Source: Isoetes taiwanensis (taxonomy: Eukaryota > Streptophyta > Lycopodiopsida > Isoetales > Isoetaceae). Taken from it: DNA of 64,000 bases. Under the pieces are notes generated by a model that saw nothing but the letters and a program-made list of their open reading frames with translations, ran no database searches and was not told where the DNA came from. Below, piece by piece: positions 4,270-64,000 of the stretch (within the stretch, counting starts at the first letter, position 1; each line of letters begins with the position of its first letter). The DNA is taken from assembly GCA_021234155.1 (NCBI GenBank), contig JAJEKV010000215.1:496001-560000 (forward strand), read 5' to 3'. Both the position numbers and the translations under genes were made by a program.

Positions 4270-5105
4270 GCATCTATCAAGTGCTGCTCCGTAAGCTCTG
4301 CATGAGTACAACATATCATCCCCAAATAGATGGTCATACGGAACAGACGAATAGGATTCTGGAAGATATATTGAGAAACTATGTATGGAATAAGTAGTCA
4401 AAGTGGAAGGACTATATCTACTTGGTTGAGTTTGCATACAATAGCACCAAGTAAGAATCATCCCAGATGTCCCCCTTTATGATTAATTATGGCTATCAAT
4501 GCCTCACACCCGATACGTGGCACAATCCTGTGATGAAGGCAGAAGTCTCTCAACAATTGTTATCAGATGTGCAGGAGTTAGTGGAGGAAGTCTGAGGGTA
4601 TTTATTAGCTGTAAGAAGACAAGCATAGGATGATGAAGGAAGTTCATATTGGAGATAGTGTGTGGCTCAAGATTAAAGTCAAGCAGGCTAAGCTCTGCTT
4701 CAGCAACTGCTCCAAGATGGGCGGGACCTTTTAAGGTTGTTGAAAGAGTAGGTACCCAATCCTACAAGCCTGATTCCCCCCCACTTAAAAGTCCATAAAG
4801 TCTTCCATGTAAGTTTCTTAAAAAGCATACACACAATCCTAAGGGAATATGGGAAACTCCAACAATATTGGAAATTACGGAGAAACAAGTTGAGATTGTT
4901 CCCAAAAGCCTTCTTGATAAGGCATTTAAGAAGACAAGAAGGTCAGAATTCCTTCAATATTTGGTCAGGTGAAAACACTTATCCCTGGAAGACGCAACAT
5001 GGGTATTGAAGCAAGATCTAGAGAAACAATATCCATCAATTTATAGAGCAATTCGACGGCCAAGTCGCCTCCGATTTAGTCAATGTCAGTCCGTCAGATA
5101 TGTGA
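4270..5105 (+). pseudogene. gypsy integrase C-terminal remnant
   Basis: Translation gives STTYHPQIDGHTEQTNRIL, the region around the catalytic Glu of a Ty3/gypsy integrase core. It continues through EFAYNSTK, then KVHKVFHVSFLK near 4790, and ends with a degenerate chromodomain-like tail near 5000 (matching [10 protein letters not shown] in the intact copy). At least six in-frame stops (after NYVWNK, after NSTK and later) and several frameshifts make it non-functional. The order and spacing match residues 780-1040 of the pol ORF at 54312-57482. Confidence 0.85.
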
Positions 5106-19937: not shown

Positions 19938-21581
19938 TCAAACAACATCAAACTCATCGTCCCCAATGTCAAGCGGGATGAAATCAGCATAGGGATCAGC
20001 AGGCTCCTGACACGGGGGCTGCACTCCACTGTTAGCGTAGACAAAGTCATCACTACTGCTTCCCCCTCCAGATTTTTCCTCCCCATCCTCGAACACGCCT
20101 GCAGCATCCCAAAAGCGTTTCCTTCTCCTTCCAACACGCTCTATTGGGACCACTCCTGGTTGGCTCCCAAATAATGCCATGCGCACATCCTTATAGCTGC
20201 ATTGCTGCGGTGCCAGCATAATCCGCCAGGCTGCTTGCACTCGTTCCAACGAGGCATATGCAGAGTTATTGGGCAATACCCAAGAACTTGCCAGCCTGAA
20301 CTTGCCAGTCTGCAGCATGCATTTGATGGTGTGAAGAAGGGACGCGGTCCTAAACCTGCCAGCATGATATGAAACATAGTGGAAAGCTTTAGCCATGAGG
20401 TTAAGATTGTCAAGCACTATCAAGTGCTTGACCTCCCCAGCCCCATATAATGCATAAAGCTCCTTCCCATCGTGCATTTGCTCCGCAGATACATTGTGCA
20501 TGTGAGCTTTAAAGTGTAACTTCCCAATATCTTTCAAACAATAGCCCACGAGGCCTTCGAAGCAATGCAATTTGCTTCCCCTCAAGGCTTTGCAGAGGAT
20601 CATAGCTCCTACGGGTTTACAAGTGTTCCATCCTAGGAAATTCTTGATTCTTACATTCAAGCTAGACGGGGTCTTCGCATCAGATCGCATCACAGCTTGG
20701 ATGTGCAAATGGTCAAGGTCTGACCCTCTTTCCAATGCAACCACTCCTGCTTTGCATTTCTCCTTCAGGAATACAATCATCCGATCGTATAATGCTTGCG
20801 AGACATCACATCCCCCAAACACAATGGTGACGGATGCATCTAGCACCCCGGGCAAATCCACGGCTTCTTCTCCAGGCCCCCCACCAATGTCAATCCCGAC
20901 ATGTTCCTCTATAAAGCTCGGAATCCTCCGGCCTCTCCCACGTCCCCGCTTCCTAGCCCCACCCCTGGCAGTCTTAACATTCACACGGGGCTCTGCCTCT
21001 TCTACAGACTCATCCCACATAGGTTCAGCACCGGATTGTGTGACTGAAGGCGCGCATCTCACTTGCCTTCCACCTGGGCGCCCACCACTACCTCGTCTGC
21101 CTCCACCTCTACCACCCCTTCCCCTCCTTGCTCCATCCCTCCTACACAAATCGGGTGCCAATGCGCCTATCCGGTCCTCAAAGACAGCAGGTATTCCTGC
21201 ATCAGCCCGCACTGCACCACCACTTCTCTCACTTCCACATTTCTGCACTGAACTCTCCATCCCCAGGCTCAATTGCTTGATCTTTCCATCCAGGCCTCCG
21301 TCCCCCTCAACCACAACATCCCGAAGGGGTGGCTCCGGCCTGGCAAACGTAATTGGCGCAGGCCTTCTGCTCCAGCTTCCCTTCCTCAGTTCACCCGCCC
21401 TACTGCACTCAGGTGGACACCCAACAACATCAAGGGAATGGAATATAGCCCCGCCACCTCCGTCTCTGCAACACCTGCAGGGACAGTTATCCAGCAAGAG
21501 CCTCTGCTCCACCATCCTGTACACCTTCACTTTCAAGCGTGCATCTCTTCTCATCTGCATCCTCCAGCCTTCTGGCCTCAC
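19938..21581 (-). CDS. Replitron-like HUH (Rep) transposase
   Basis: 547 codons. Rep-class HUH nucleases nick single-stranded DNA with a metal held by two His and one catalytic Tyr. Residues 291-293 are His-Leu-His in LDHLHIQAVM (HUH motif), and residues 347-350 are Tyr-Cys-Leu-Lys in GYCLKD (YxxK motif, a single-Tyr Rep). A hydrophobic strand VTIVFGG at 251-257 sits where motif I belongs. No Walker A follows, so there is no Rep helicase. Residues 380-490 form a second, mostly helical domain and the C-terminus is acidic. The first 220 residues are low-complexity and Arg/Gly-rich. Met108 at 21260 is an alternative start, since the part before it looks poorly conserved. One Tyr, a second domain and no helicase fit Replitrons, unlike two-Tyr Helitrons. 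CRESS-virus-derived Rep is the main alternative. The ORF is GC-rich compared with its surroundings. Confidence 0.8.
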   Translation of the reverse strand: MRPEGWRMQMRRDARLKVKVYRMVEQRLLLDNCPCRCCRDGGGGAIFHSLDVVGCPPECSRAGELRKGSWSRRPAPITFARPEPPLRDVVVEGDGGLDGKIKQLSLGMESSVQKCGSERSGGAVRADAGIPAVFEDRIGALAPDLCRRDGARRGRGGRGGGRRGSGGRPGGRQVRCAPSVTQSGAEPMWDESVEEAEPRVNVKTARGGARKRGRGRGRRIPSFIEEHVGIDIGGGPGEEAVDLPGVLDASVTIVFGGCDVSQALYDRMIVFLKEKCKAGVVALERGSDLDHLHIQAVMRSDAKTPSSLNVRIKNFLGWNTCKPVGAMILCKALRGSKLHCFEGLVGYCLKDIGKLHFKAHMHNVSAEQMHDGKELYALYGAGEVKHLIVLDNLNLMAKAFHYVSYHAGRFRTASLLHTIKCMLQTGKFRLASSWVLPNNSAYASLERVQAAWRIMLAPQQCSYKDVRMALFGSQPGVVPIERVGRRRKRFWDAAGVFEDGEEKSGGGSSSDDFVYANSGVQPPCQEPADPYADFIPLDIGDDEFDVV

Positions 21582-40489: not shown

Positions 40490-40860
40490 CACTACGCTCA
40501 GAAAAAATCTAACCTCTGGAGAAGGGTGATCCCCTCTTGCCTCATCAGGGCTGGGGAGATGAAACCCAGTAGTAGCCCCCTTGGCTATGCACCCGGCCGG
40601 CTACGGTCCAATCCCAAGACTCTTCAACCTATTCTGCAAAGTATGCACAGGAGGGGTCAATGGAGAGGACTTCCCAACAGACATGTTCCTATGCCAGCCC
40701 AATTCATTGACATGAATTCTGTCTTCAATGACTTCTGGAGACCCAAGTCGTCCGTCCATACCCCTTGAGTCTGAGCCTTGGGCAGGATCTCCTTTGATGA
40801 TGTTGTTGATGTGCTTACACATGTATGCTATGGTGAACCACCCTTTGGGGCCTAAGCCAG
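40490..40860 (+). repeat. LTR fragment of the 51.8-64 kb gypsy family
   Basis: The plus strand here matches the minus strand of the LTR at 51779-53420. Shared blocks in order are CTGGGGAGATG..CCCAG, CCCCCTTGGCTATGCACCC, CTGCAAAGT.TGCACAGGAGG, ATGTTCCTATGCCAGCC, and the GAGACCCAAGTCGTC and GAGCCTTGGGCAGGAT stretches. It is several hundred bases of an LTR of about 1.6 kb, with neither terminus recognisable, so it is a truncated solo fragment. Confidence 0.75.
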
Positions 40861-51778: not shown

Positions 51779-53420
51779 TGTGACGTCCCCTACTCATATA
51801 CGGTGCACCCACCGTATACAAACAGGAGTTCTCCCCCTATACCAGCTCCATGCCGATACAGGGCCCTCCACATGACACTGCAACCGTAACGGGTTCCAGT
51901 GGGAAGAGTGAAGGGGTCATTTTACCCCTGCGGAAGCGTAAACATACATGTCAGTATATAAGAGCAACACATATATCCACCCCTAAGGGTGGTACATCAC
52001 ATCTGCATAGACAATGATCAGCACAATACATAGGGGAATCCTACCCAAGGCTCGGACACGGGGATGGACTGACAAGCTTGGGTCCCCAGAGTTCATTGCA
52101 GACAGAATTCATGGCAATGGATTTGGCTGGCATAAGAACATGGCAATGGGTAGTCCACTCCATCCGCCCCTCCTGTGCACACTTTGCAGAGTAGGTTGAA
52201 AAGTGTTGGGACCTGACTGTAGCCCGCCGGGTGCATAGCCAAGGGGGCTATTTCTGGGTTGCATCTCCCCAGTCCCGATGGGGCAGGTAGGGATCACTCC
52301 CTCCAGAGATCTACATGCTGACTCAAGGTGACTAGAGGGCCACTGCCCTTATTCGACTGAACCCACTGGAAAGTGAACCCCACTCCACGGGTGTCGAGCC
52401 CATGCCTTGCCCACACTCAGTGGCAAGCCATTAGACCTAGTCACAATGATCCCCGGTAGGCCTTACACACCAGAGGGATCGTTCAAGAGTCAGGACACGA
52501 ACCTCCTTCTTAGCCAGTCTGGCCCCTTCACCCACAACCAGGTGTGGTTCTTGTACACAGGCCGAATCTATATGGTGCTAGAGAGGCTAGTCTAGGAGCA
52601 TCTACTACCAAGCTTTAGGTCTCTACCCCCCTTCCCAATACAAGGAGCTCATAGAGATACATCATCCACATATATCATAAGAGAACTAAAGAACAAGATC
52701 TAATCTATATCATAGAGTTAGGTTCTTTAGTTAGAATCTGGTATCTAGAGATCTAGAAGGCTGCTATGAGCAATTTAATAGGCTAAACCTACTGATTCTA
52801 TGTCTAAAAGAGGGTTTAAGCTATTAAATTGCTTAAATACCTGATCCTTGAGGGACTCCTCCTGACCTGAGTTCGACCATCCTGCTGAAACGCTCGAATC
52901 AAGGAAAACTAATGGTGCAATTCACTCAGGCAGAGTCTGGGAGGCGGTTTTGGCTCTTGAGGCAGCCAAAACAGAGCTCTAAAACCCTAGAAACGAAAAA
53001 TGGGCAAGTTAGGGTTTCCCCTCCTAAATAGACATGGGGGGTGGTTAGGGTTTCCAATTATCCCCTTTTGGCATGTGGGATAATTGGGAATGGGCCCACT
53101 TGCCATTAATGGCTAGGTGGCAAAATGTGCCCACATGGAAAGGTGTGCCCATATTAATGTGCATATTGGGGAATGTGCACATTAATTGCACACTTTGGGT
53201 ATGGCCCACTTGGCATAGAGTGGCCACATGGGAAAATGTGCACCTAAGTGAATGTGCACATGGTTTAATGTGCACATTAATAAATGCACACTCCTTGCAC
53301 GTTGCCCCCTAGGGCTACTAGCCTGGCTATACGTCGGCGTACACGTCAGTCGGGATGGCGTGTACGCGTGATGAAGCAGTACAGTATACGCCCTGGGACC
53401 GTATACTGTGCTACGTCACA
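51779..53420 (-). repeat. 3' LTR, 1642 bp
   Basis: Bounded by TGTGACGT and ACGTCACA, a perfect 8-base terminal inverted repeat with TG..CA ends. The first 640 bases or so are repeated in the same orientation at 63367-64000. A polypurine tract abuts the inner end at 53421. The stretch TATATAAGAGCAACA appears in the plus orientation at 51956-51970. Fragments of the same LTR family occur at 40490-40860 and, more diverged, at 5842-7490. Confidence 0.93.
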
Positions 53421-54311: not shown

Positions 54312-57300
54312 CTACACAATCGACATGCCTGAGCCGATTTCTTCGGAGATGACCTTGCCGTCCCATTGCTCCATGAACTGTGGGTACTGCTTTAGTAGAT
54401 CTTTCTTAAGTACCCATGTCGCGTCTTCCACTGGCAAGTGTTTCCACTTGACCAAGTATTGGAGGAACTCTGACCTCCTTGTTTTCTTGAAGGCTTTATC
54501 AAGAATCAATTCTGGAACTATTTCCAGCTCCTCCTCCGTTATTTCCAACAACGTTGGAGTGTCCAAGACTTCGTCTGGATTTGGAGTATGCTTCTTCAAC
54601 AAGCTCACATGGAAGACCTTATGAATCTTTAGGTGTGCTGGTAGATCCAATCTGTAGGATTGATTACCTACTCTCTTGATTATCTTGAAAGGTCCAGCCC
54701 ACCTTGGAGCAAGTTTCTTGCAATTCCCGATCCTGAGCTTCGCCTGCTTCACCTTGATCTTGAGCCACACATTGTCGCCAACTTTGAACTCCCTGACTGT
54801 TCGATGCTTGTCGGCGATGCTCTTCTGCCGGCTCCTCGCTGCTAGAAGATACCCCCGAACTTCTTCCACTAGCTGCTGCATATCGGCCAACATGTGCTGC
54901 GAAACTTCTACTTTTGACACGGGATTGTGCCAAGTGTCTGGAGTTAGGCATTGATAGCCGTAATTGATCATGAACGGCGACATTTGGGATGATTCCTGCT
55001 TGGTGCTATTGTATGCAAACTCCACCAAGTGAATAAATTCTTCCCACATACCTTGCTTATTCCAGACATAGTTTCGTAGCATGTCCTCCAAAATCCTGTT
55101 GGTCCGCTCCGTTTGGCCATCCGTCTGAGGATGATATGCCGTGCTCATGGATAATTTCGTCTGAATGGTTGCAAAGAGGTCTTGCCAAAAGACGCTCATG
55201 AACTTCGGATCCCTGTCGGAGATGATCTCCCTTGGCATGCCATGAAGCCTAAAGATCTCTTTGGTGAAGAGCTTTGCTGTATCCATAGCTGTCTGTTGTC
55301 CTGCAAGGCACGAAATGTGCCATCTTTGACAACTTGTCGACTCTTTCCCTCTTACTGTCCTTGGAAGCCCTGTGATAAAATCCATGCTGATCACTTCCCA
55401 CTTAGCGTTTGGCACCGCTAATGGCTCTAATGCTCCTGGAATTCGAAGTTGCTCTGCCTTCGTCTGCTGACACAGCTGACATTCCTTGATGTAGCGAGCG
55501 ACTTGCTTCTTCATTCCTGGCCAATAATAGCTGCTGCGCACTTTGAAATATGTTTTCATGAATCCCGCATGGCCAGCTATTGGACTGTTGTGTGTGTCAT
55601 GGAGGATCAACTTCCTTACTCCTGAAGATTCTGGCACACACAACTTGTTCTTATGGTATAATAGGTTACCTTCCTTCTTAAAATGTTTGAAGGCTTCCCG
55701 CTCCTTATCTGTTCTTGCTTCCCTACATAAGCTTGCCCATACTTCCTTGAAGTCGACATCTGTTGGCAGGGACTCTTCGATCTTCTTCCCGAAGTCGCTG
55801 GAAAGCGTCGAAATTGCATTGCAATGCACTCTAGTTGTCAGGGGATGCCTTGAAAGCGCATCCGCTACCACATTGAGCTTCCCTGGTTTGTAGACTATAT
55901 CGAAGTCATACTCTTCAAGGAACTCCATCCACCTTCTCTGCCTCAGGTTGAGATGTGGTTGCGTGAATACATACTGGAGCTCTTGGTGATCTGTATCCAA
56001 TTGGAACTTCCTTCCCAAAAGGTAATGCCTCCAAATTCTTAATGCCCTGACAACCGCAAGCAATTCCTGATCATGCGTGGGGTAGCGCGTCTCGGCATCG
56101 TTCATCTTCCTGGAATCATACGCTACTACACGCTCTTCCTGCATGAACACTGCACCTGTAGCTATCTTACTCGCATCTGTGGCTACAAGCTTATCTTTCT
56201 CAGGATCTGGCAGGGTCAAGACGGGGGCGGTCGTTAAAGCTTCCTTCAACAATTCAAACCCCTTTTGGGCTTTCTTATGCCAATGATCTACCCAATCTTT
56301 CACTTTTTCTGCCCTTGTCAAGTCTGTTAGCGGGGCCGCTATCTTAGCAAAGTTCCTCACGAACTTCCTGTAGTACCCTGCTAGGCCTAGAAAACTTCTG
56401 ACCTCATGCACATTCTTCAGTGCTGGCCACTGAATGACGGCTTCGATCTTGGAAGGGTCCGTCGAAATTCCTTCTGCAGAGATCACATGGCCAAGATACT
56501 CCACCTTCTCCGTTGCGAAGTGGCACTTCGACAACTTAGCGTACAACTGGTGCCTCTTCAACTTTTCCAGCACCCTCCTTAAGTGTTGTACGTGCTCTTC
56601 AAGGGATCTGCTATACACCAAAATGTCATCAAAGAATACAATCACAAAGGTGTCTAAGAACTCCCTGAAGATGTCGTTCATGAGCCTCATGAACGTCGCG
56701 GGGGCATTCGATAAGCCGAAAGGCATTACCGTGAACTCATAATGCCCATACCGTGTTCTGAAGGCGGTCTTATGGATATCTTCTTCCTTTATCCTGATCT
56801 GGTGATACCCTGACCTTAAGTCGATTTTGGAGAAGACCTTTGCACCTTGGAGTTGATCCATCAAGTCATCTGATCTGGGAAGCGCGTACTTGTTTTTGAT
56901 GGTGTGCTTGTTCAACTGCTTATAGTCTATGCACATCCTCAAACTGCCATCCTTCTTCTTAACAAAAAGAATGGGCGCTTCAAATGGTGAGACGCTAGGT
57001 CTAATGAAGCCTAGGTCGAGCAACTCCTGCAATTGCTTCTTTAACTCCGTCAATTCCTGCGTCGTCATTCTGTACGGAGCCTTACTTGTCGGCTTCGTTC
57101 CCGGTTCGAGTGTTATCTCACACTCGACTCCCCTGTAAGGAGGGAGGTGCTCGATCTCATCAGGAAAGAGATCATGGAATTCCGTGATCAAGTTAGCTAT
57201 TTGCCCGCAACTTCTTTGAGCACCTTGTCTTCTTTGCTTTCTTGGACTCGGCTCTTCAATCTCAAGCTTAAAGATGTAAGCTACTTGCTCGCTCTTGATG

Positions 57301-57482
57301 CACTTGAACAGCCGTTTAGAAGACATACACTGCATGATGGGAACAACTTCCTTACCTGTGATCTCAATGATCTTGCCGTCGGCCATCGGGAAGGTCACTT
57401 TCCGCTTTCCACAATCAATGATGGCCCCTGCCGGTCCAAGATACTCCATTCCTATGATCAAATCATACTTGCCAATGCCCAT
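54312..57482 (-). CDS. pol: chromovirus pol: RT, RNase H, integrase, chromodomain
   Basis: 1056 codons open from the ATG at 57482, which lies inside the protease; the protein starts with the end of that domain (DLIIGMEYL). RT spans about residues 110-340, with [34 protein letters not shown] and the active site FFDDILVYS (283-291). RNase H follows, with TDAS (D436) and TDHQELQY. Integrase has an H..H..C..C zinc finger (H631, H638, C668, C671) and the D701, D756, E792 triad with D35E spacing. A GPF/Y-type region and a chromodomain ([20 protein letters not shown], about 1003-1040) end it. Residues 712-730 are out of frame: the next frame encodes the expected [12 protein letters not shown], so two compensating indels have occurred (55349-55293). 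The missing segment makes activity doubtful. Confidence 0.96.
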
Positions 57483-58321
57483 TACTTACGCTCCCATCCG
57501 AATGTTTATTCACGGCAATTCGATGTCGGTTGATCCTCTTGCTTGCATGCGCCTTCTTTGCTCCACTTGCTAAAACAACGGGTCTCGGCCGACTTCAGCC
57601 CGGTTTCAACTTCCAACATTTGCACCATTCTTGGGGATGCAAAATTATGGCTACTTCCTGAATCTATCAGGACTATGAAAGACTTGGCCTTGGCCTTCCC
57701 AACTGTGGAAATTACCTTATACTGACTCTCTGCTTGCTCTGTATCTATTGCGGCAAAGATATGACACTCACCCCACGAATGTAGTCGCGGGCTTCCTCGC
57801 CGTCGTCGTCCAGACGGGGATGTCCCAATCTCCCAACTCCGCTAGTCTTTGCACTCATGGCGTAGGGGCAGTTCATTTGTTCTATGGTTTGGCTGGAAGC
57901 ACTGGAAGCAAAGCTGTTTCTCCATGCACTCTTGCCTCTTCTCCTTGGGCATAGCACGCAAAAGGATCGCCTTTGCTTTGGGGTAGTTTGACCCCTCCGC
58001 TTGTCCTTGAAGGACACCGCTTCTTCTCTCGCTTTGCTTCCCCAGTTTGCCACCATATGGGGCCCCGGCTGGACTGGATCGGGTGGCTGCCCTAGGACTA
58101 TAGCTTCTGTTGCCTTGCCTTTCTCCCCGAAATATCTTTGCCTCGCCGCTATCTATTACGAGGTCCCGTCCCTTGCAAGCTTATGGCCTTGGACTCTGCT
58201 TCCGATACTGTCTTAGGGTTTATTGCCCTCACCAGTTTGCGAATCTCATCATTCAGCCCCTCAATATAGCTTTCCTCTAATGCATGCTTTTCTCCTAACT
58301 TTGCTTTATCTGACCTTAGCC
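57483..58321 (-). pseudogene. gag zinc knuckle and aspartic protease, frame-broken
   Basis: Translating the minus strand in changing frames shows a knuckle-like CFQCFQPNHRTNELP near 57870-57915, with Leu-Pro where the last Cys is expected. It then shows KSFIVLIDSGSSHNFASPRM with the protease active site DSGS at 57653-57664. The catalytic Asp is intact, but stops before the knuckle and between it and the protease prevent a continuous product. Confidence 0.8.
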
Positions 58322-59126
58322 TCATGAATTCCTCTCATATACGACTGATTTGTTTCCCTGCTGCAACCTATAGAATTGCTGCATCATGCTGGACTTATGC
58401 TCCCTTGGGACGTAGTGGCGCTTGAAAGCCTTAGCAAACTTCTTGAACCTGCAAGCATCCCTGCTTAAGCCGTGTGCCTTGGCATAATCCTTCCACCAAA
58501 TACGTGCTGCTCCTTTCAGGTTGGCTGTTGCCACCCTGCCTTTATCCTTATCCTTCATGCCATAAGCGTTGCCGTATTCGCTCATCTCATCGAGCCAAGC
58601 CTCGGCCTCCATTCCTGACCTGTTCTCGCCCGAGAATTGCTCTAGTTTTCTGGCTTTCCAAACATTTCCCAAAGCAGAGTCTACCTTCTTCTGGTAGTCA
58701 GAGACTCTTGTGTCCTTTTTGTCGTCCATCGGGGTGTTCCTCGCCTTCCCTCTTGGTGTTCCTTTGCCTTCCATCCGTTAGGTCCTGGGCTGCTCTTCTT
58801 CTTCCTGGTCGGTCTGAATCGAGCTTGAGTCGGAGGAATCGGGCTGGGGATCTCCTTCTCTTGCTCCTCTCCTTGTCCCTTCCTGTTTTCCGAGCTGATG
58901 CTTGTGGCAATTGAGCATTGCCCACCGAACCCGCTCCTGCTTGTGCGGCTAGCAGAGCCTTTATCTGCTCAAGGTCCGTCCTCATCTGGGATATCTCCTC
59001 CTCTGGGGTCATGGGTTCCATTTCTTCAAATAGATTCCTTGCCGGAGGTGGTCTGGGCGGGGTCTGTTCTTCCATGATGTCTCGGCGTTGTTGTTCTCCT
59101 GAGCCTAGGCTTCTAGCTGCATACAC
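58322..59126 (-). pseudogene. gag: gag capsid region, split in two frames
   Basis: The first ORF (59126-58698) has a Pro-rich start, a short coiled stretch (EEEISQMRTDLEQIKALLAA) and a basic end. The second (58774-58322) carries the retrotransposon gag core: LEQFSGENRSGMEAEAWLDE, then RIWWKDYAKAHG and FKRHYVPREHK. They overlap out of frame by about 75 bases, so either a frameshift mutation or programmed frameshifting links them. Mutation is more likely because other parts of gag-protease are broken. Confidence 0.8.
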
Positions 59127-59294
59127 AAGTAATTCATGGCTATATGGTTAGATTTACTTGTTCTCTTGCATTGTTTATGTTTGTTGGTATAGTTGTGGGG
59201 CAAGCATATCAACAAAACATTTAAAGTGCAAAAGAAATTATATTTATATTATATAATATTTCAGTACAAAAGGTCTCCGGGATCAAGAGTCTAA

Positions 59295-60265
59295 CTAGTC
59301 TTGAAATCGCCGGTAAGACGGGTTGTCTTCAAGGAACTTCTTAACTTGGGCCGTTCCTACCGAATGGCCCAAGTTCCCGATGACGCTTTTGGCGACGAGC
59401 CGCCTCTGCAAACTCTCGCCCAGTTCTTCCACTCTGGCGATTGGGATGTAAGAGCGGCGGTCATCGCCAATCTCGGCGTGGCGTCGATGCGGTATAGCTA
59501 AGTCGAAGAGATCAAGTGCCATTGCTCTCTTTGACCAAGACAAAGATAGTCGACATTTGGCGCTTATGCGAGCATGCCCGCCCAAGCACGAGAGTGCAAT
59601 CAAGATGAACACTCCTTCTTCTCCTCGGGGCTGAACTTGCGGTGTATCACCGCTACTCTCCCATCTAGCGGCGGTAGTACCTCGAGGGGATCAATGCGTT
59701 GTGCGTCGCCGGATGATTCTCCACTTGTTTGGCCTCGCTGCGTGCCGCCCGTGGCAGATTCGTCGACCTCTATCTCGGTGAGCTCCCGGTAGTCTTCAAT
59801 AGTGGAGTCGACTCGCCTGAGGTCGATTCCTGCTCCTCTTGATAGAGGTGGTTTCGAAGGCCTTGGCATTAGAATGCTCGTGGTCTTCCCACGGATCCCC
59901 ATCTGTTCTTGGAGGGCGAGGAACTCCTCCTCCGTTGGCAGCTCTTGCTCCTCCATCATTTGCCTCGACATCTGCTTTGTAGGCCCAGATGCAAGTCGAC
60001 TCTCACCGTAGGTGTCGGCTTCCCTCACTTGGAGCGGAAAGTCCGAGGCTCCCCGGACGATGAAGTCGTCCAAGTCTGACTGCCATAGCTGGTGGAGTAA
60101 TTCATCCAATTTGAGCTCCCTCTCCCTGCACTCGGGAAGGTTCTGGATGTCGCTGAGGAGCAAATACTCCTCTCCGTTGATGATGATTGGGGCTAGGCTT
60201 GTGATGCCTAGCCCGAGTGGGGGAGCAACTCTGATGTTCTGCCGGCTCTGCTCGAAGTTCATCAT
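59295..60265 (-). CDS. extra ORFs upstream of gag, unknown function
   Basis: ORF 60265-59600 has 221 codons with IIINGEEYLLLSDIQNLPE, ELKLDELLHQLWQSDLDDF and a long acidic, Gln/Glu-rich middle. A second ORF (59612-59295, 105 codons) begins in another frame just before it ends, containing VEELGESLQRRLVAK and VKKFLEDNPSYRRFQD. They may be one protein split by a frameshift. No known domain is visible. The predicted helices and acidic stretches could be a structural or chromatin-binding partner. They lie on the same strand as gag, inside the LTRs. Confidence 0.55.
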
Positions 60266-60479
60266 CTCTGATTGCGCTTGTTGTTGTCGTTCCTCCTCGA
60301 GTCGAGCTCGCGGTACTTATCGCCGCCGGACTCCTCTTCTTCTTCGTCTTCTCCTTCGCTCTTGCGATCTTTGCAAAAGCATCCGCTCTTCTTCTGCCTT
60401 TGCTATGGGGTCCACCTCCATCCCGGAGGGATAGAGGTTGCCCCCATTGGGTTTTCGAGACGGTGGGATAAGAAAATGG

Positions 60480-60900
60480 CTAAAGGCAGCGTGTAGGAGA
60501 AGTACTTGGTCCTATTAGTGTCGGGACCATGTAGTCGGGTAGCTCTGGCGCTTTGTTGGTTAAGTACTTGGCGATGTTGGGGACATCACCCAAGGCCATT
60601 TGAAAGGATTGGCGGGAACAAAGTATCCTATCTGTGGGGAAACGGACAAGGGAGGGTTCTACCCTAGCTTGGAACTCGCTAATACTTGCCTATATGCCGG
60701 GTTGCATTCGCCAGTAAGCTTGGATATCAATTTCCTTCCCGAAGACGCGGAAGATGTCATCGACATCTGCCTCAGCAGCATGGGCACTGGCGCTGTACCA
60801 TCGCCTGAAGTCAGCAGTGGCCATTGATCTAGCAAGGAAGGGAGTATCAAACGAATGCAGAAGCGCCTCAGGGAGCTGGAAGATTGCCTAGACAGTGGAG
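60480..60900 (-). pseudogene. broken coding remnant upstream of the extra ORFs
   Basis: One minus-strand frame reads ADFRRWYSASAHAAEADVDD, IFRVFGKEIDIQAYWRMQPG, a stop, then RVEPSLVRFPTDRI and LGDVPNIAKYLTNKAPELPD. The amino acid content is protein-like across the stops. It probably continues into the ORF at 60265 through frame changes near 60300-60470 (an Arg-rich and Glu-rich linker). No family recognised. Confidence 0.45.
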
Positions 60901-61126
60901 AGCAAACTTGCAGGGTGCTAAATGAAAAATGATGGGCCTATTTATAGAAAAGGGGAAAACCCTAATTTTTGGATGACCTAGAATTTGCTGGAGTTGGGCG
61001 ATTCTGACCTATTAGGAGGTGCAATTGAGGGTTTGAAGGCTGATTTTTGGTTTAAAGCATGCTAAGAACAACTAATGAACCTATTGCAGCAAACTGGAGG
61101 TCATTTGGTGAAGAAAATGGTGCGAG

Positions 61127-61193
61127 GTCTCACACGTTGCGCCCAGACCGATTTTGAGAAGTTCATTATCTACCCTGGCGCGACGTGTGAGAC
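61127..61193. repeat. hairpin 1 (GTCTCACACG arms)
   Basis: Arms GTCTCACACGTTGCGCCCAG and CTGGCGCGACGTGTGAGAC pair almost perfectly across a 28-base loop. Located on the 3' side (element orientation) of the histone-domain ORF, about 275 bases past its stop. Confidence 0.85.
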
Positions 61194-61467
61194 ATGGGTC
61201 CTAAATGGGCTAAACTTAATCAATTTGGGTAATTTAAGGCTGTAATTCCACTAAACTCGTCGAGTTAGGCAGAATTGACCCCTTATTTGGTCGATTTGGA
61301 GCAGTTTTGGGCACTTTTGGGCATGGTCTCAATTTTGCTCAAAAACTCCAATTTTATCAAAACAAAAGCTAGAATTCTATAACTTAACTTAATTAAGCTA
61401 GATTAGACACATTATTTATCCACAAAATTCTTTATATTAACAAAAATTTCTGTTATTTACAAAAATC

Positions 61468-62121
61468 TCAAGGGCGTTCTCCCTTGATGTGCCTGGCAAG
61501 ATACATATCCTGCCTCATGAGGGTAACCCTCTTCGCGTGTACTGTGCAGGCCGTCGAATCTTCAAAATGCTGCACTATTTTCGCCTCCGCTGCCTCCTGT
61601 AAGCACAGCAGCATCTCGTCGGTTACTCGCATGTCCGTGTTGTACTCCTGCATGACTTCACGGACCAAGCGTTGGAACGGTGCCCGAGGGATCAAGAGTC
61701 CGTAACTCTTCTGGAAGTGCCGGATCTCCTTGAGAGCTCTGTCCTCCGACTTCTTCTTCTTGCTTCGCTTCTTCCCTGGTGCTCGGGGAGGCTTGGGCCT
61801 GGGTGGTGGCGGCTTCAAGGTTTGGCTTCTTGTCGGATGTCCGCCTTCGATTGTTCTCACCCTGTGCTCCTGGTAATAGGCATTGTATGCCTCCCACTTC
61901 GCCATGTAAGCGTTGTGCTCCTTGATCCTCTTCTGATAGACCTTTACGGGGTCTATCACATATGCTTCCCGTTGCGGCCGCGGGGCTTTGACTCTGTCCC
62001 ACGTCGGGAATGGTGGGGGCCTGGCGGCTGTCGAGCAGCCCATCGGGCTCTCCACTGTTGGGTACCTCCTTCTCTGCGACCGGGGTTCTCGAAGAGCTTG
62101 CCCCCTCTGTGTTGGGGACAT
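61468..62121 (-). CDS. histone H3-fold protein encoded inside the retrotransposon
   Basis: 217 codons from the ATG at 62121. Residues 129-217 form a complete H3 histone fold that ends exactly where H3 ends: [16 protein letters not shown] (alpha-N), [13 protein letters not shown] (alpha-1), TDMRV (loop 1), [15 protein letters not shown] (alpha-2), HAKRVT (loop 2), [15 protein letters not shown] (alpha-3). H3 positions kept include Lys56 (K138), Cys110 (C192), His113 (H195), Asp123 (D205) and Leu126 (L208); Lys79 is Asn161. [10 protein letters not shown] and RVTLMR recall CENH3, but loop 1 has ordinary H3 length. The H3 tail is replaced by a new 128-residue region: a helix ([20 protein letters not shown]), a Pro-rich part, and a basic patch GKKRSKKKK. 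An overlapping frame from 62164 begins [16 protein letters not shown] and looks more protein-like before 61990, so the true N-terminus may involve a frameshift. Confidence 0.85.
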
Positions 62122-62174
62122 AATCGTCGTCCGAGTCGTCGGTCGGCCGGCGGGGTCTCTTCACGGCGGCTCAT

Positions 62175-62815
62175 TGATGGCGGGGGCCCTCAGCCAGCTT
62201 ACCAACCTTGGCGACTCTTCGCGCTTTGCCTTAATGCCCTTGGCCTTCCTCTTCTTGACGGCTATGGTTGGACCGTCTTCCCGGTTCTTAGTCCCTACGC
62301 TTGGCACTTCTTGTCTTCATATTTCTTGATGAAGGCTGCGAGGTCTACTTCTTCGGCGGGGGGTAAGCTTTGGCTGACTCTTTGCTCTGTCTCTCCTCCT
62401 CCTCTTAACGAGGGCGGGCCCAAGCTTATTTGTTGTTGACAATCGGCTGTCCCCTCTGCTCCCGTTCCTCCCACTTCTCCTTTCCTCCCTCGGCCGATCT
62501 CTTGATTTGCTGCATGATGTCGGAGGCTCCTCCTCTATGATCTCCGTCTGATCGCTCCGGTCCGAGTCTGTCCCCTCGCTTGATGAAGATTCCCCCTGAT
62601 TGAGAAGGCGTTCGCGAAGTGCCCTTTGAATCAGACTGGGGTCACTGGCGCTGGAGGATGTGTGCTTGCTGAGCTTTCTAGCGGTTTGTTTTCGTCAGGG
62701 CCATGTTCGACGGTTCATTCGCCGTCGGACTCTGGCGCCAAAAGATCGCCTTGGCAAAGAGAGCTGAATTTTCTAAGCAGGGTACGCGAAATGGGGGTCG
62801 AGGTCTATTTATAGG
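62175..62815 (-). other. GC-rich leader upstream of the histone-domain ORF
   Basis: No uninterrupted ORF, but a minus-strand frame is protein-like with several stops (Arg/Glu/Ser-rich). It may be decayed coding sequence of an N-terminal extension. Composition changes to AT-rich beyond 62815. Confidence 0.4.
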
Positions 62816-62893
62816 GGCAATTTTTTTTTGGTCAAACTTGAAACTACCTTTTTGGGTTATCTAGAGCACGTAAAACACCTTAATCTAAGCAAG

Positions 62894-62960
62894 GTCTCAC
62901 ACGTTGCGCCCAGCCCGAAAATGAAAAGCCCATTTCCTGTCCTGGCGCGACGTGTGAGAC
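62894..62960. repeat. hairpin 2 (GTCTCACACG arms)
   Basis: Same arms as hairpin 1 (GTCTCACACGTTGCGCCCAG and CTGGCGCGACGTGTGAGAC), with loop CCCGAAAATGAAAAGCCCAT and eight more bases. It lies on the 5' side of the histone-domain ORF. Confidence 0.88.
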
Positions 62961-63094
62961 ATGGTGGGGTCCACTATCAAATTTGCTACTTTTTAATCAT
63001 GTAACTTGCTAATTCTAATGTTTCTTAGCTCTAATTTAGAATTATCAAGCTATTTTATTGTAATTCATGACTTTTTAATGTGTTCAAGCTGAAT

Positions 63095-63160
63095 GTCTCA
63101 CACGTTGCGCCCAGCCCGAAAATGAAAATCTCATTTCCTCGTCTGGCGACGCGGTGAGAC
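63095..63160. repeat. hairpin 3 (GTCTCACACG arms)
   Basis: Left arm identical to hairpins 1 and 2. The right arm (CTGGCGACGCGGTGAGAC) has decayed by small changes. The loop is nearly identical to that of hairpin 2, so the two arose by duplication. It lies between hairpin 2 and the primer-binding site. Confidence 0.8.
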
Positions 63161-63346
63161 CATTCCTACTTTTGAAGGTTAGCTCATCACTTCTTAATCT
63201 TTTTATGTTTTCATATATTTTAACTGTTACTAGCTTAGCAATACTACAAAAATGAGAAAAATTTTTCCCATTTTTCGAGGTTTAAGGATCCTACTAAGTT
63301 AGTACTACTGGGAACATGGTCAGTGCTTTGCTCTTGGTCACCAAGA

Positions 63347-63364
63347 ACATTGCTCACGATACCA
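63347..63364 (-). promoter_or_regulatory. primer-binding site, initiator-tRNA-Met type
   Basis: Just inside the 5' LTR, the minus strand reads TGGTATCGTGAGCAAT. TGGTATC is the start of the common plant retrotransposon primer site TGGTATCAGAGC; the rest has diverged. Position next to the LTR end supports the call. Confidence 0.6.
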
Positions 63365-63366
63365 CC

Positions 63367-64000
63367 GTGGACGCCCCCCTACTCATATACGATTGCACCC
63401 ACCGTATACAAACAGAGTTCTCCCCTATACCAGCTCCATGCCGTCTGGGGGCCCTCCACATGACATCGCAACCGTAGCGGGTTCCGGTGGGAAGAGTGAA
63501 GGGGTCATTTTACCCAAATCTCCCTCGGGGCCTACCTAGGCGTGGAAGCGTAAACATACATGTCAGTATATAAGAGCAACACATATATCCACCCCTAAGG
63601 GTGGTACATCACATCTGCATAGACAATGATCAGCCACAATACATGGGGAATCCTACCCAAGGCTCGAGACACGGGGATGGGTGACAAGCTTGGGTCCCCG
63701 AGTTCATTGCGCATGCGAAATTCATGGCAATGGATTTGGCTGGCATAAGAACATGGCAATGGGTAGTCCACTCCATCCGCCCCTCCCTGTGCACACTTTG
63801 CGAGTAGGTTGAAAAGTGTTGGGACTTTGTGAGCCACGGGTGCATAGCCAAGGGGGCTATTTACGGGTTGCATCTCCCGGTCCGATGGGGCGGTAGGGAT
63901 CACTCCCTCCAGAGATCTACATCTTTGACTCAAGGTGACTAGAGGGCCCGCTGCCCTTATTCGTGAACCCTTTGGAAAGTGAACCCCACTCCACGGGTGT
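63367..64000 (-). repeat. 5' LTR, cut by the window end
   Basis: Aligns to the first 640 bases or so of the LTR at 51779-53420 in the same orientation, including the GTATACAAACAG, ATGTCAGTATATAAGAGCAA and GGGTGGTACATCACATCTGC stretches. It carries many 1-10 base indels relative to the other copy, plus a 28-base segment (63517-63544 region, CAAATCTCCCTCGGGGCCTA) that the other copy lacks. Confidence 0.92.

What the first reader, a model, noticed from the sequence alone, without database searches (positions are those of the whole stretch)
61468..62164. Histone H3-fold ORF carried inside a Ty3/gypsy retrotransposon, upstream of gag
A complete, open H3 fold with the canonical C-terminal end lies between the 5' LTR and gag on the element's coding strand. 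The H3 tail is replaced by a 128-residue unrelated region. H3 dimer-interface positions (Cys110, His113, Asp123, Leu126 equivalents) are kept and the Lys79 equivalent is lost. I know of no plant chromovirus with such an ORF. If made, it could join nucleosomes and help the element target, or protect itself in, chromatin; a chromodomain at the end of pol points the same way. Some words recall CENH3, raising the idea of centromere targeting.
Basis: partly seen in the sequence, partly recalled or inferred. Interest (0 to 1): 0.92.

Follow-up and report, generated by a model that had tools for sequence, protein, structure and literature searches.

The report
Histone H3 gene inside a retrotransposon
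A plant jumping element carries, ahead of its own genes, what looks like a real gene for an unusual version of the DNA-packaging protein histone H3, so the element might change how its own DNA or its host's DNA is packaged.

Summary
A plant Ty3/gypsy chromovirus (minus strand; 5' LTR 63376->64000, cut by the window end; 3' LTR 51787-52394+) carries a sense-strand H3 fold between LTR and gag (61746-61471; Pfam Histone 1.9e-28). Main correction: the H3 tail is not replaced. An ATG at 62704, 109 nt after a TATA box, opens with the H3 tail start (9 of 10 residues), split over two frames in this copy; a linker of about 310 codons and the fold follow. Codon usage trained on the element's pol marks linker helix and fold as coding. 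A second unidentified ORF (60824-59295) has a related leader and the same hairpin. A database search gave 48 proteins (363 members); 9 are long H3s of the same plan (tail start, linker of 294-610 residues, fold), 22 more look like shorter forms of these; hosts unnamed. In the papers I saw, element-borne H3 occurs only in fungal hAT transposons. Limits: one broken copy; other copies, selection and transcripts untested, as the genome search did not complete. CENH3 kinship is unresolved; its loop-1 insertion is absent. Function is inferred: an element-encoded nucleosomal H3.

The parts
63376..64000 (-). 5' LTR of the element (continues beyond the window)
   Evidence: 88% identical to 51787-52394 over 641 columns
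63352..63364 (-). PBS-like stretch TGGTATCGTGAGC just inside the 5' LTR, resembling the tRNA-iMet PBS
   Evidence: read; TGGTATC exact, then a gapped match by eye to the recalled plant iMet PBS; the ungapped scan (4 mismatches or fewer) did not report it, so weak
63090..63165 (-). hairpin repeat between LTR and ORF1
   Evidence: RNA fold z -4.43
62889..62964 (-). hairpin repeat upstream of the ORF1 TATA box
   Evidence: RNA fold z -6.24; arm motif 5 matches in window, 0.03 expected
62806..62813 (-). TATAAATA, 109 nt before the ORF1 ATG
61468..62704 (-). ORF1: H3 gene (tail start, long linker, H3 fold, stop); broken by frame changes and stops in this copy
62675..62704 (-). H3 tail start, MALTK, then KQTARK in the next frame
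61849..61950 (-). linker helix before the fold (ORF residues 58-91)
   Evidence: AF2 helix, block pLDDT 85-87 in its middle, 66-69 at its ends; highest coding score of ORF1
61471..61746 (-). H3 fold (H3 residues 44-135)
61122..61197 (-). hairpin repeat upstream of ORF2
   Evidence: RNA fold z -6.13
60939..60946 (-). TATAAATA, 122 nt before the ORF2 ATG
59295..60824 (-). ORF2: second additional ORF, no known domain found, in several frame pieces in this copy
59241..59248 (-). TATAAATA upstream of gag, in an AT-rich stretch
   Evidence: weakest of the three
57590..59075 (-). gag, frame-broken (Retrotrans_gag PF03732 in 58774-58322)
54312..57482 (-). pol, open 1056 codons: RT, RNase H, integrase, chromodomain
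   Evidence: 81% identical to P0049
51787..52394 (-). 3' LTR (its upstream end not determined)

Best explanation
What it is (largely shown): an additional gene of a plant chromovirus, with a TATA box and leader of its own, that encodes an H3 variant made of the first nine or ten H3 tail residues, a long linker and a complete H3 fold. How it works (inferred): an internal transcript makes a replacement H3 that pairs with host H4 and enters nucleosomes, on the element's new DNA or more widely. Its tail keeps K4 and K9 but has no recognisable K14-K36 part, so these nucleosomes could not take K27 or K36 marks, which would blunt silencing. My probabilities: coding H3 gene of the element 0.85; nucleosomal replacement H3 that helps the element escape silencing 0.35.
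For: H3 fold without indels, 51 of 92 residues as in Arabidopsis H3.3 (recalled); Pfam and PDB; AF2 helices in the H3 order, pLDDT block means 83-94 over residues 141-180; the 50 Foldseek rows shown of 1464 are nucleosome or octamer entries. Residues R69, R72, T80, D81, R83, E97, E105, C110, H113, K115, R116, V117, T118, D123, L126 kept (their contact roles recalled). Tail start. Codon usage like pol in linker helix and fold. TATAAATA upstream of 3 of 3 ORFs; 0 of 5000 simulations had two or more. Leaders of ORF1 and ORF2 related, 0 of 500 shuffles as good. Other long H3s: exact MARTKQTARK start in 7 of 48 hits, at least 8 of 10 in 9 of 48.
Against: One copy only, and it is broken. Openness alone is weak: 205 of 2000 neutral simulations of the same divergence had no stop; conservation at superfamily-invariant sites is only moderately raised (22 of 29 against 29 of 61, Fisher p 0.013). 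The codon scan is weak over most of the tail-to-linker part (62710-62320) and reaches +6.7 between pol and the 3' LTR too. AF2 confidence is low for alpha-N (54-56) and the C-terminal part (67-76), pTM 0.32. R63, F84, Q85 and K122 are changed. No transcript, protein or functional data. The first 150 residues of the ORF match no database protein of 119-380 residues (50 candidates, none at E 0.001). K9 is kept, so H3K9 methylation is not evaded. The TATA motif was chosen after it was seen.
Confidence: 0.4

Rival explanations
1. Decoy: the protein stays largely outside nucleosomes and its exposed H3 tail start (K4, K9) on a long flexible arm titrates the readers and writers that silence the element.
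For: Only about the first ten tail residues are kept, exactly in 7 of 48 database hits; a long arm suits a bait.
Against: The whole H3 fold is also kept, which a bait would not need.
Confidence: 0.2
2. Packaging or tether: the H3 fold pairs with host H4 or H3-H4 chaperones to bring the element's DNA or integration complex to chromatin or to compact it.
For: H4-pairing residues kept (roles recalled); chromodomain in the same element.
Against: ORF1 is separate from gag-pol, with a TATA box of its own, so it is not obviously part of the particle; chromodomain keeps one of three cage residues by eye against recalled HP1.
Confidence: 0.15
3. Captured or nested host H3/CENH3 sequence of this copy or subfamily, carried passively and decaying; possibly bounded by the hairpin repeats as ends of a small DNA transposon.
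For: ORF1 is broken; hairpin copies lie on both sides (61122-61197, 62889-62964); captured H3 copies in Mycosphaerellaceae hAT elements carry stops except one presumed original per genome (PMC6710886, section 9), and Culex Helentrons carry broken histone gene pieces (PMC4067079, passages).
Against: Each of these two hairpins is followed by a related TATA/leader and an ORF, so they look like promoter parts; codon usage of linker helix and fold is like pol's; 41 of 92 fold residues differ from Arabidopsis H3.3 with no indel; breaks may partly be assembly errors, since the LTR pair shows 21 gap openings against 27 mismatches.
Confidence: 0.2
4. Centromeric H3 (CENH3) captured by the element to reach centromeres.
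For: CENH3-like words [20 protein letters not shown] (references recalled); tree puts it near plant CENH3s without strong support; a clade with plant CENH3s is not rejected (AU p 0.519).
Against: No loop-1 insertion; tail reads KQTARK, whereas plant CENH3 tails (recalled) diverge after MARTK; the tree without long rows joins it to the long H3s (90/93).
Confidence: 0.1

Closest known systems
H3L genes in hAT DNA transposons of Pyrenophora tritici-repentis (PMC3538342, passages and section 20 part 1 of 2 read) and H3-like sequences in hAT elements of Mycosphaerellaceae (PMC6710886, abstract and sections 6, 9 read)
   Same: A mobile element carrying an H3-like gene; in P. [quoted passage not shown]
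   Different: DNA transposons in fungi; here an LTR retrotransposon of a plant, with TATA/hairpin modules and gag-pol.
[quoted passage not shown]
   Same: An extra gene kept in a plant LTR element; a promoter of its own is known for Grande gene23 (antisense).
   Different: Here the domain is a histone. 'histone' has 0 occurrences in PMC7264820; section 12 of PMC9289625 (121 angiosperm genomes, 15 domains) names no histone domain in its text; its figure was not seen.
Histone gene fragments in Culex Helentron-Cq-32A (PMC4067079, passages)
   Same: Histone sequence inside a mobile element.
   Different: Fragments of an H4-superfamily and an H15 gene, broken, in a rolling-circle element.
Plant CENH3 (recalled)
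   Same: Short words in the alpha-N, alpha-1 and C-terminal parts; divergent tail.
   Different: No loop-1 insertion; element-borne; KQTARK tail start.
Unnamed long H3s P0010, P0021-P0025, P0028, P0032, P0034
   Same: Tail start, linker of 294-610 residues, H3 fold.
   Different: Linkers not alignable with the window's; hosts and neighbours unknown, so being element-borne is unproven.

Membership tests
Ty3/gypsy chromovirus | RT-RNase H-integrase order with C-terminal chromodomain | tested here: met
Ty3/gypsy chromovirus | LTR pair, gag before pol | tested here: met
Ty3/gypsy chromovirus | tRNA primer binding site after the 5' LTR | tested here: inconclusive
   TGGTATC-start stretch at 63364, not reported by the ungapped scan
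Ty3/gypsy chromovirus | target-site duplication | not testable with these tools
   outer end of the 5' LTR lies outside the window
Histone H3 | H3 fold above the Pfam cut-off with H3 as best solved relative | tested here: met
   99.6 bits against 26.4; the 60 PDB sequences shown of 175 are named H3
Histone H3 | N-terminal ARTKQTARK tail | tested here: met
   MALTK/KQTARK, split over two frames in this copy; one residue differs
Histone H3 | tail residues 10-43 with K14, K18, K23, K27, K36 | tested here: not met
   long unrelated linker in their place, read from the frames
CENH3 | insertion in loop 1 | tested here: not met
   H3 spacing without indel (CENH3 references recalled)
CENH3 | clade with CENH3s | tested here: inconclusive
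   disagree; AU p 0.519
Fungal hAT-H3L elements | hAT transposase with terminal inverted repeats | tested here: not met
   element has RT/integrase and LTRs
Plant LTR element with additional ORF | same ORF conserved across copies | not tested
   The genome search did not complete (ten attempts)

The most novel reading that the evidence does not exclude
Mobile elements in several eukaryotes have each evolved long H3s that keep the nine-residue tail start and the nucleosome fold and replace everything between with a disordered arm: a recurrent class of element-encoded chromatin proteins that rewrite the histone code on or around the element.
Probability: 0.3. Interest if true: 0.92.

Novelty: new variant of a known kind. 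Interest (0 to 1): 0.74.

Why it matters
If the gene is made, an LTR retrotransposon supplies its own histone H3. That would give a direct test of whether transposons fight silencing at the level of the nucleosome, and would show which part of the H3 tail is enough. It also points to a set of long H3s in public sequence that came with no source name in the search.

Tried and rejected
Chance H3 match: rejected. H3 tail replaced: rejected by the tail start at 62704. Known domain for ORF2: none above a cut-off (three pieces, best weak match SPMIP5 E 0.098, one piece, none); its single-sequence structure model is useless (mean pLDDT 37.9). Hairpins as a known RNA family: no Rfam match up to E 1 in 58000-64000; arm word not in viral contigs. 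Relatives of P0022 or the window H3 in viral contigs: none confirmed. Linking the long H3s to pol by equal contig lengths: none shared between the 48 rows and the lengths printed in the 120 rows shown of 7915. Remote match of the long-H3 linker to the window: none, only the fold. Chromodomain recruitment by K9: by eye against recalled HP1 only the W of the Y/W/Y cage is seen, so not argued. Paper searches; of the rows listed I opened PMC6710886, PMC3538342, PMC2864245, PMC9289625, PMC12786077, PMC10741241 and PMC4067079, and PMC7264820 from a reference list; the other rows were seen as listings only.

Full report
The element. On the minus strand the window holds a Ty3/gypsy element: 5' LTR 63376->64000 (cut by the window end), 3' LTR 51787-52394 or longer (88% identical over 641 columns, 27 mismatches, 21 gap openings), gag (PF03732) and an open pol of 1056 codons with RT, RNase H, integrase and chromodomain. 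Its closest database relative is P0049, an unbroken 1602-residue gag-pol on a 4999-base contig, 81% identical; the other 119 rows shown are 40-56% identical, among them Closterium, flowering-plant and PITA-named proteins (PITA taken to be Pinus taeda, recalled) (the 7915 candidates sharing most words were scored, 120 rows shown). So an unbroken close relative of this gag-pol exists. A second piece of the same pol family lies at 4272-5035 (+), and an LTR-like stretch at 40514-40788.

The window also holds a replitron HUH protein (PF21859, E 7.4e-19); [quoted passage not shown] I infer a non-seed plant, perhaps a fern or lycophyte.

The H3 fold. The 217-residue ORF 62121-61468 ends in an H3 fold without indels: 51 of 92 residues equal Arabidopsis H3.3 (reference recalled). 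Pfam Histone E 1.9e-28; 175 PDB sequences at E 0.001 or better, the 60 shown being named H3. AF2 (17-sequence alignment) gives helices 125-139, 146-159, 168-196, 203-212; whole model mean pLDDT 67.5, pTM 0.32; block means 83-94 over residues 141-180, but 54-56 over alpha-N and 67-76 after residue 180. The 50 Foldseek rows shown (of 1464 at E 10 or better) are nucleosome or octamer entries. R69, R72, T80, D81, R83, E97, E105, C110, H113, K115, R116, V117, T118, D123 and L126 are kept; R63P, K79N, F84V, Q85T, K122Q and R129H are among the 41 changes.

The tail. Three-frame translation shows an ATG at 62704 that reads MALTK and, in the next frame, KQTARKLSKH: together the H3 tail start (MARTKQTARK) with one residue of ten changed. 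KQTARK occurs once in the six frames of the window and never in 60 simulated windows. After residue 9 or 10 the similarity ends; about 310 codons of linker follow. This copy has frame changes and stops between tail and fold. Small indels are frequent between the LTRs, so some breaks may be assembly errors; this is inference.

Is it coding? Codon scores trained on this element's pol (40-codon windows; pol itself, which trained it, +5 to +17) are +4 to +16 for 62080-61480 in the fold's frame and +5 to +11 for 62320-62110; between (62200-61990) two frames score alike, and 62710-62320 is weak with shifting frames. The gaps around ORF1 stay at +2.8 or less, but the stretch between pol and the 3' LTR reaches +6.7, so low positive scores say little. 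ORF2 (60824-59295) reaches +14.5. Against: 205 of 2000 neutral simulations reach the same divergence without a stop, and the excess of conservation at superfamily-invariant sites is modest (22 of 29 against 29 of 61, p 0.013).

Promoter-like modules. TATAAATA occurs 6 times on the minus strand of the window; 3 of the 6 lie upstream of ORF1 (109 nt to the ATG), ORF2 (122 nt) and gag (173 nt to Met 59075; AT-rich, weakest). In 5000 simulations of the 5.4-kb stretch none had more than one such placement; chance per site with local composition is 0.002, 0.003 and 0.016 (motif chosen after being seen; the test's ORF1 and gag starts were off by 1 and 9 nt). The leaders of ORF1 and ORF2 are related (score 52; best of 500 shuffles 46; against the gag leader 20 and 22). 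A 76-nt hairpin (RNA fold z -6.2, -6.1, -4.4) lies twice between LTR and ORF1 and once between ORF1 and ORF2; its arm matches 5 times in the window with 0.03 expected. So ORF1 and ORF2 look like two genes driven by copies of one promoter module. No known domain was found in ORF2.

Relatives. A search with ORF1 read through in one frame (residues 200-408 scored, candidates of about 224-714 residues) gave 48 proteins at E 0.001 or better of 380 candidates, standing for 363 sequences. 7 of 48 start with exact MARTKQTARK and 9 of 48 with at least 8 of 10; in these nine the linker is 294-610 residues. Of the other 39, 22 share at least half of their six-letter words with one of the nine and look like shorter forms that start at an inner Met. 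P0030, P0045 and P0046 are other histone-fold proteins. Only the fold matches the window. The nine aligned share a middle domain not found in the window. Clusters of up to 121 members suggest high copy number. Hosts and neighbours are not given, so I cannot show that they are element-borne. A search with residues 1-150 of the 217-residue ORF found none at E 0.001 (50 candidates), so no second copy of this ORF was found.

Trees (92 columns, references recalled) do not settle the origin: with 25 rows the window joins P0030 (94/89) and then plant CENH3s (81/73), not strongly supported; with 20 rows (five dropped: P0016, P0024, P0030, P0045, P0046; P0039 was skipped in both) it joins the long H3s (90/93), and a clade with plant CENH3s is not rejected (AU p 0.519). 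The CENH3 loop-1 insertion is absent.

In print. H3 genes in hAT DNA transposons of fungi are described, in one case with tail insertions (PMC3538342; PMC6710886); Culex Helentrons carry broken pieces of other histone genes (PMC4067079, passages). Plant LTR elements with extra ORFs are well known, including an RNA demethylase (PMC7264820, PMC9289625). In the rows listed by my ten searches (one of them on replitrons; one search listed 5 of 3,804) I saw no H3 gene in an LTR retrotransposon; the library holds only open-licence PMC papers, and most rows were seen as listings.

Verdict. Very likely a real H3 gene of a plant chromovirus, new to me as a combination, of unproven function. The most likely role is a replacement H3 in nucleosomes; a decoy tail and a chromatin tether are the next. 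What is missing is other copies: the genome search did not complete in ten attempts.

Noticed in passing
window 19941-21581 (-): Replitron HUH endonuclease ORF (PF21859, E 7.4e-19), 547 codons stop to stop; points to a non-seed plant host.
   Followed up: partly
window 59295-60824 (-): Second additional ORF of the element, strong coding score, no known domain found.
   Followed up: partly
window 61122-61197, 62889-62964, 63090-63165: Three copies of a stable 76-nt hairpin near the two extra ORFs; no Rfam match.
   Followed up: partly
window 4272-5035 (+): Fragment of pol of the same element family, 60-77% identical in pieces to P0049.
   Followed up: no
window 40514-40788: LTR-like stretch of the same family in opposite orientation, possibly a solo LTR remnant.
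   Followed up: no
window 51787-52394 and 63376-64000: LTR pair with nearly as many small gaps (21 openings) as mismatches (27), clustered by eye, as if from long-read assembly errors.
   Followed up: partly
P0010, P0003, P0022, about residues 30-200: The long H3s share a middle domain (KV..EYS, LTLP, HG...R.A) of unknown kind; no Pfam match outside the histone fold in these three.
   Followed up: partly
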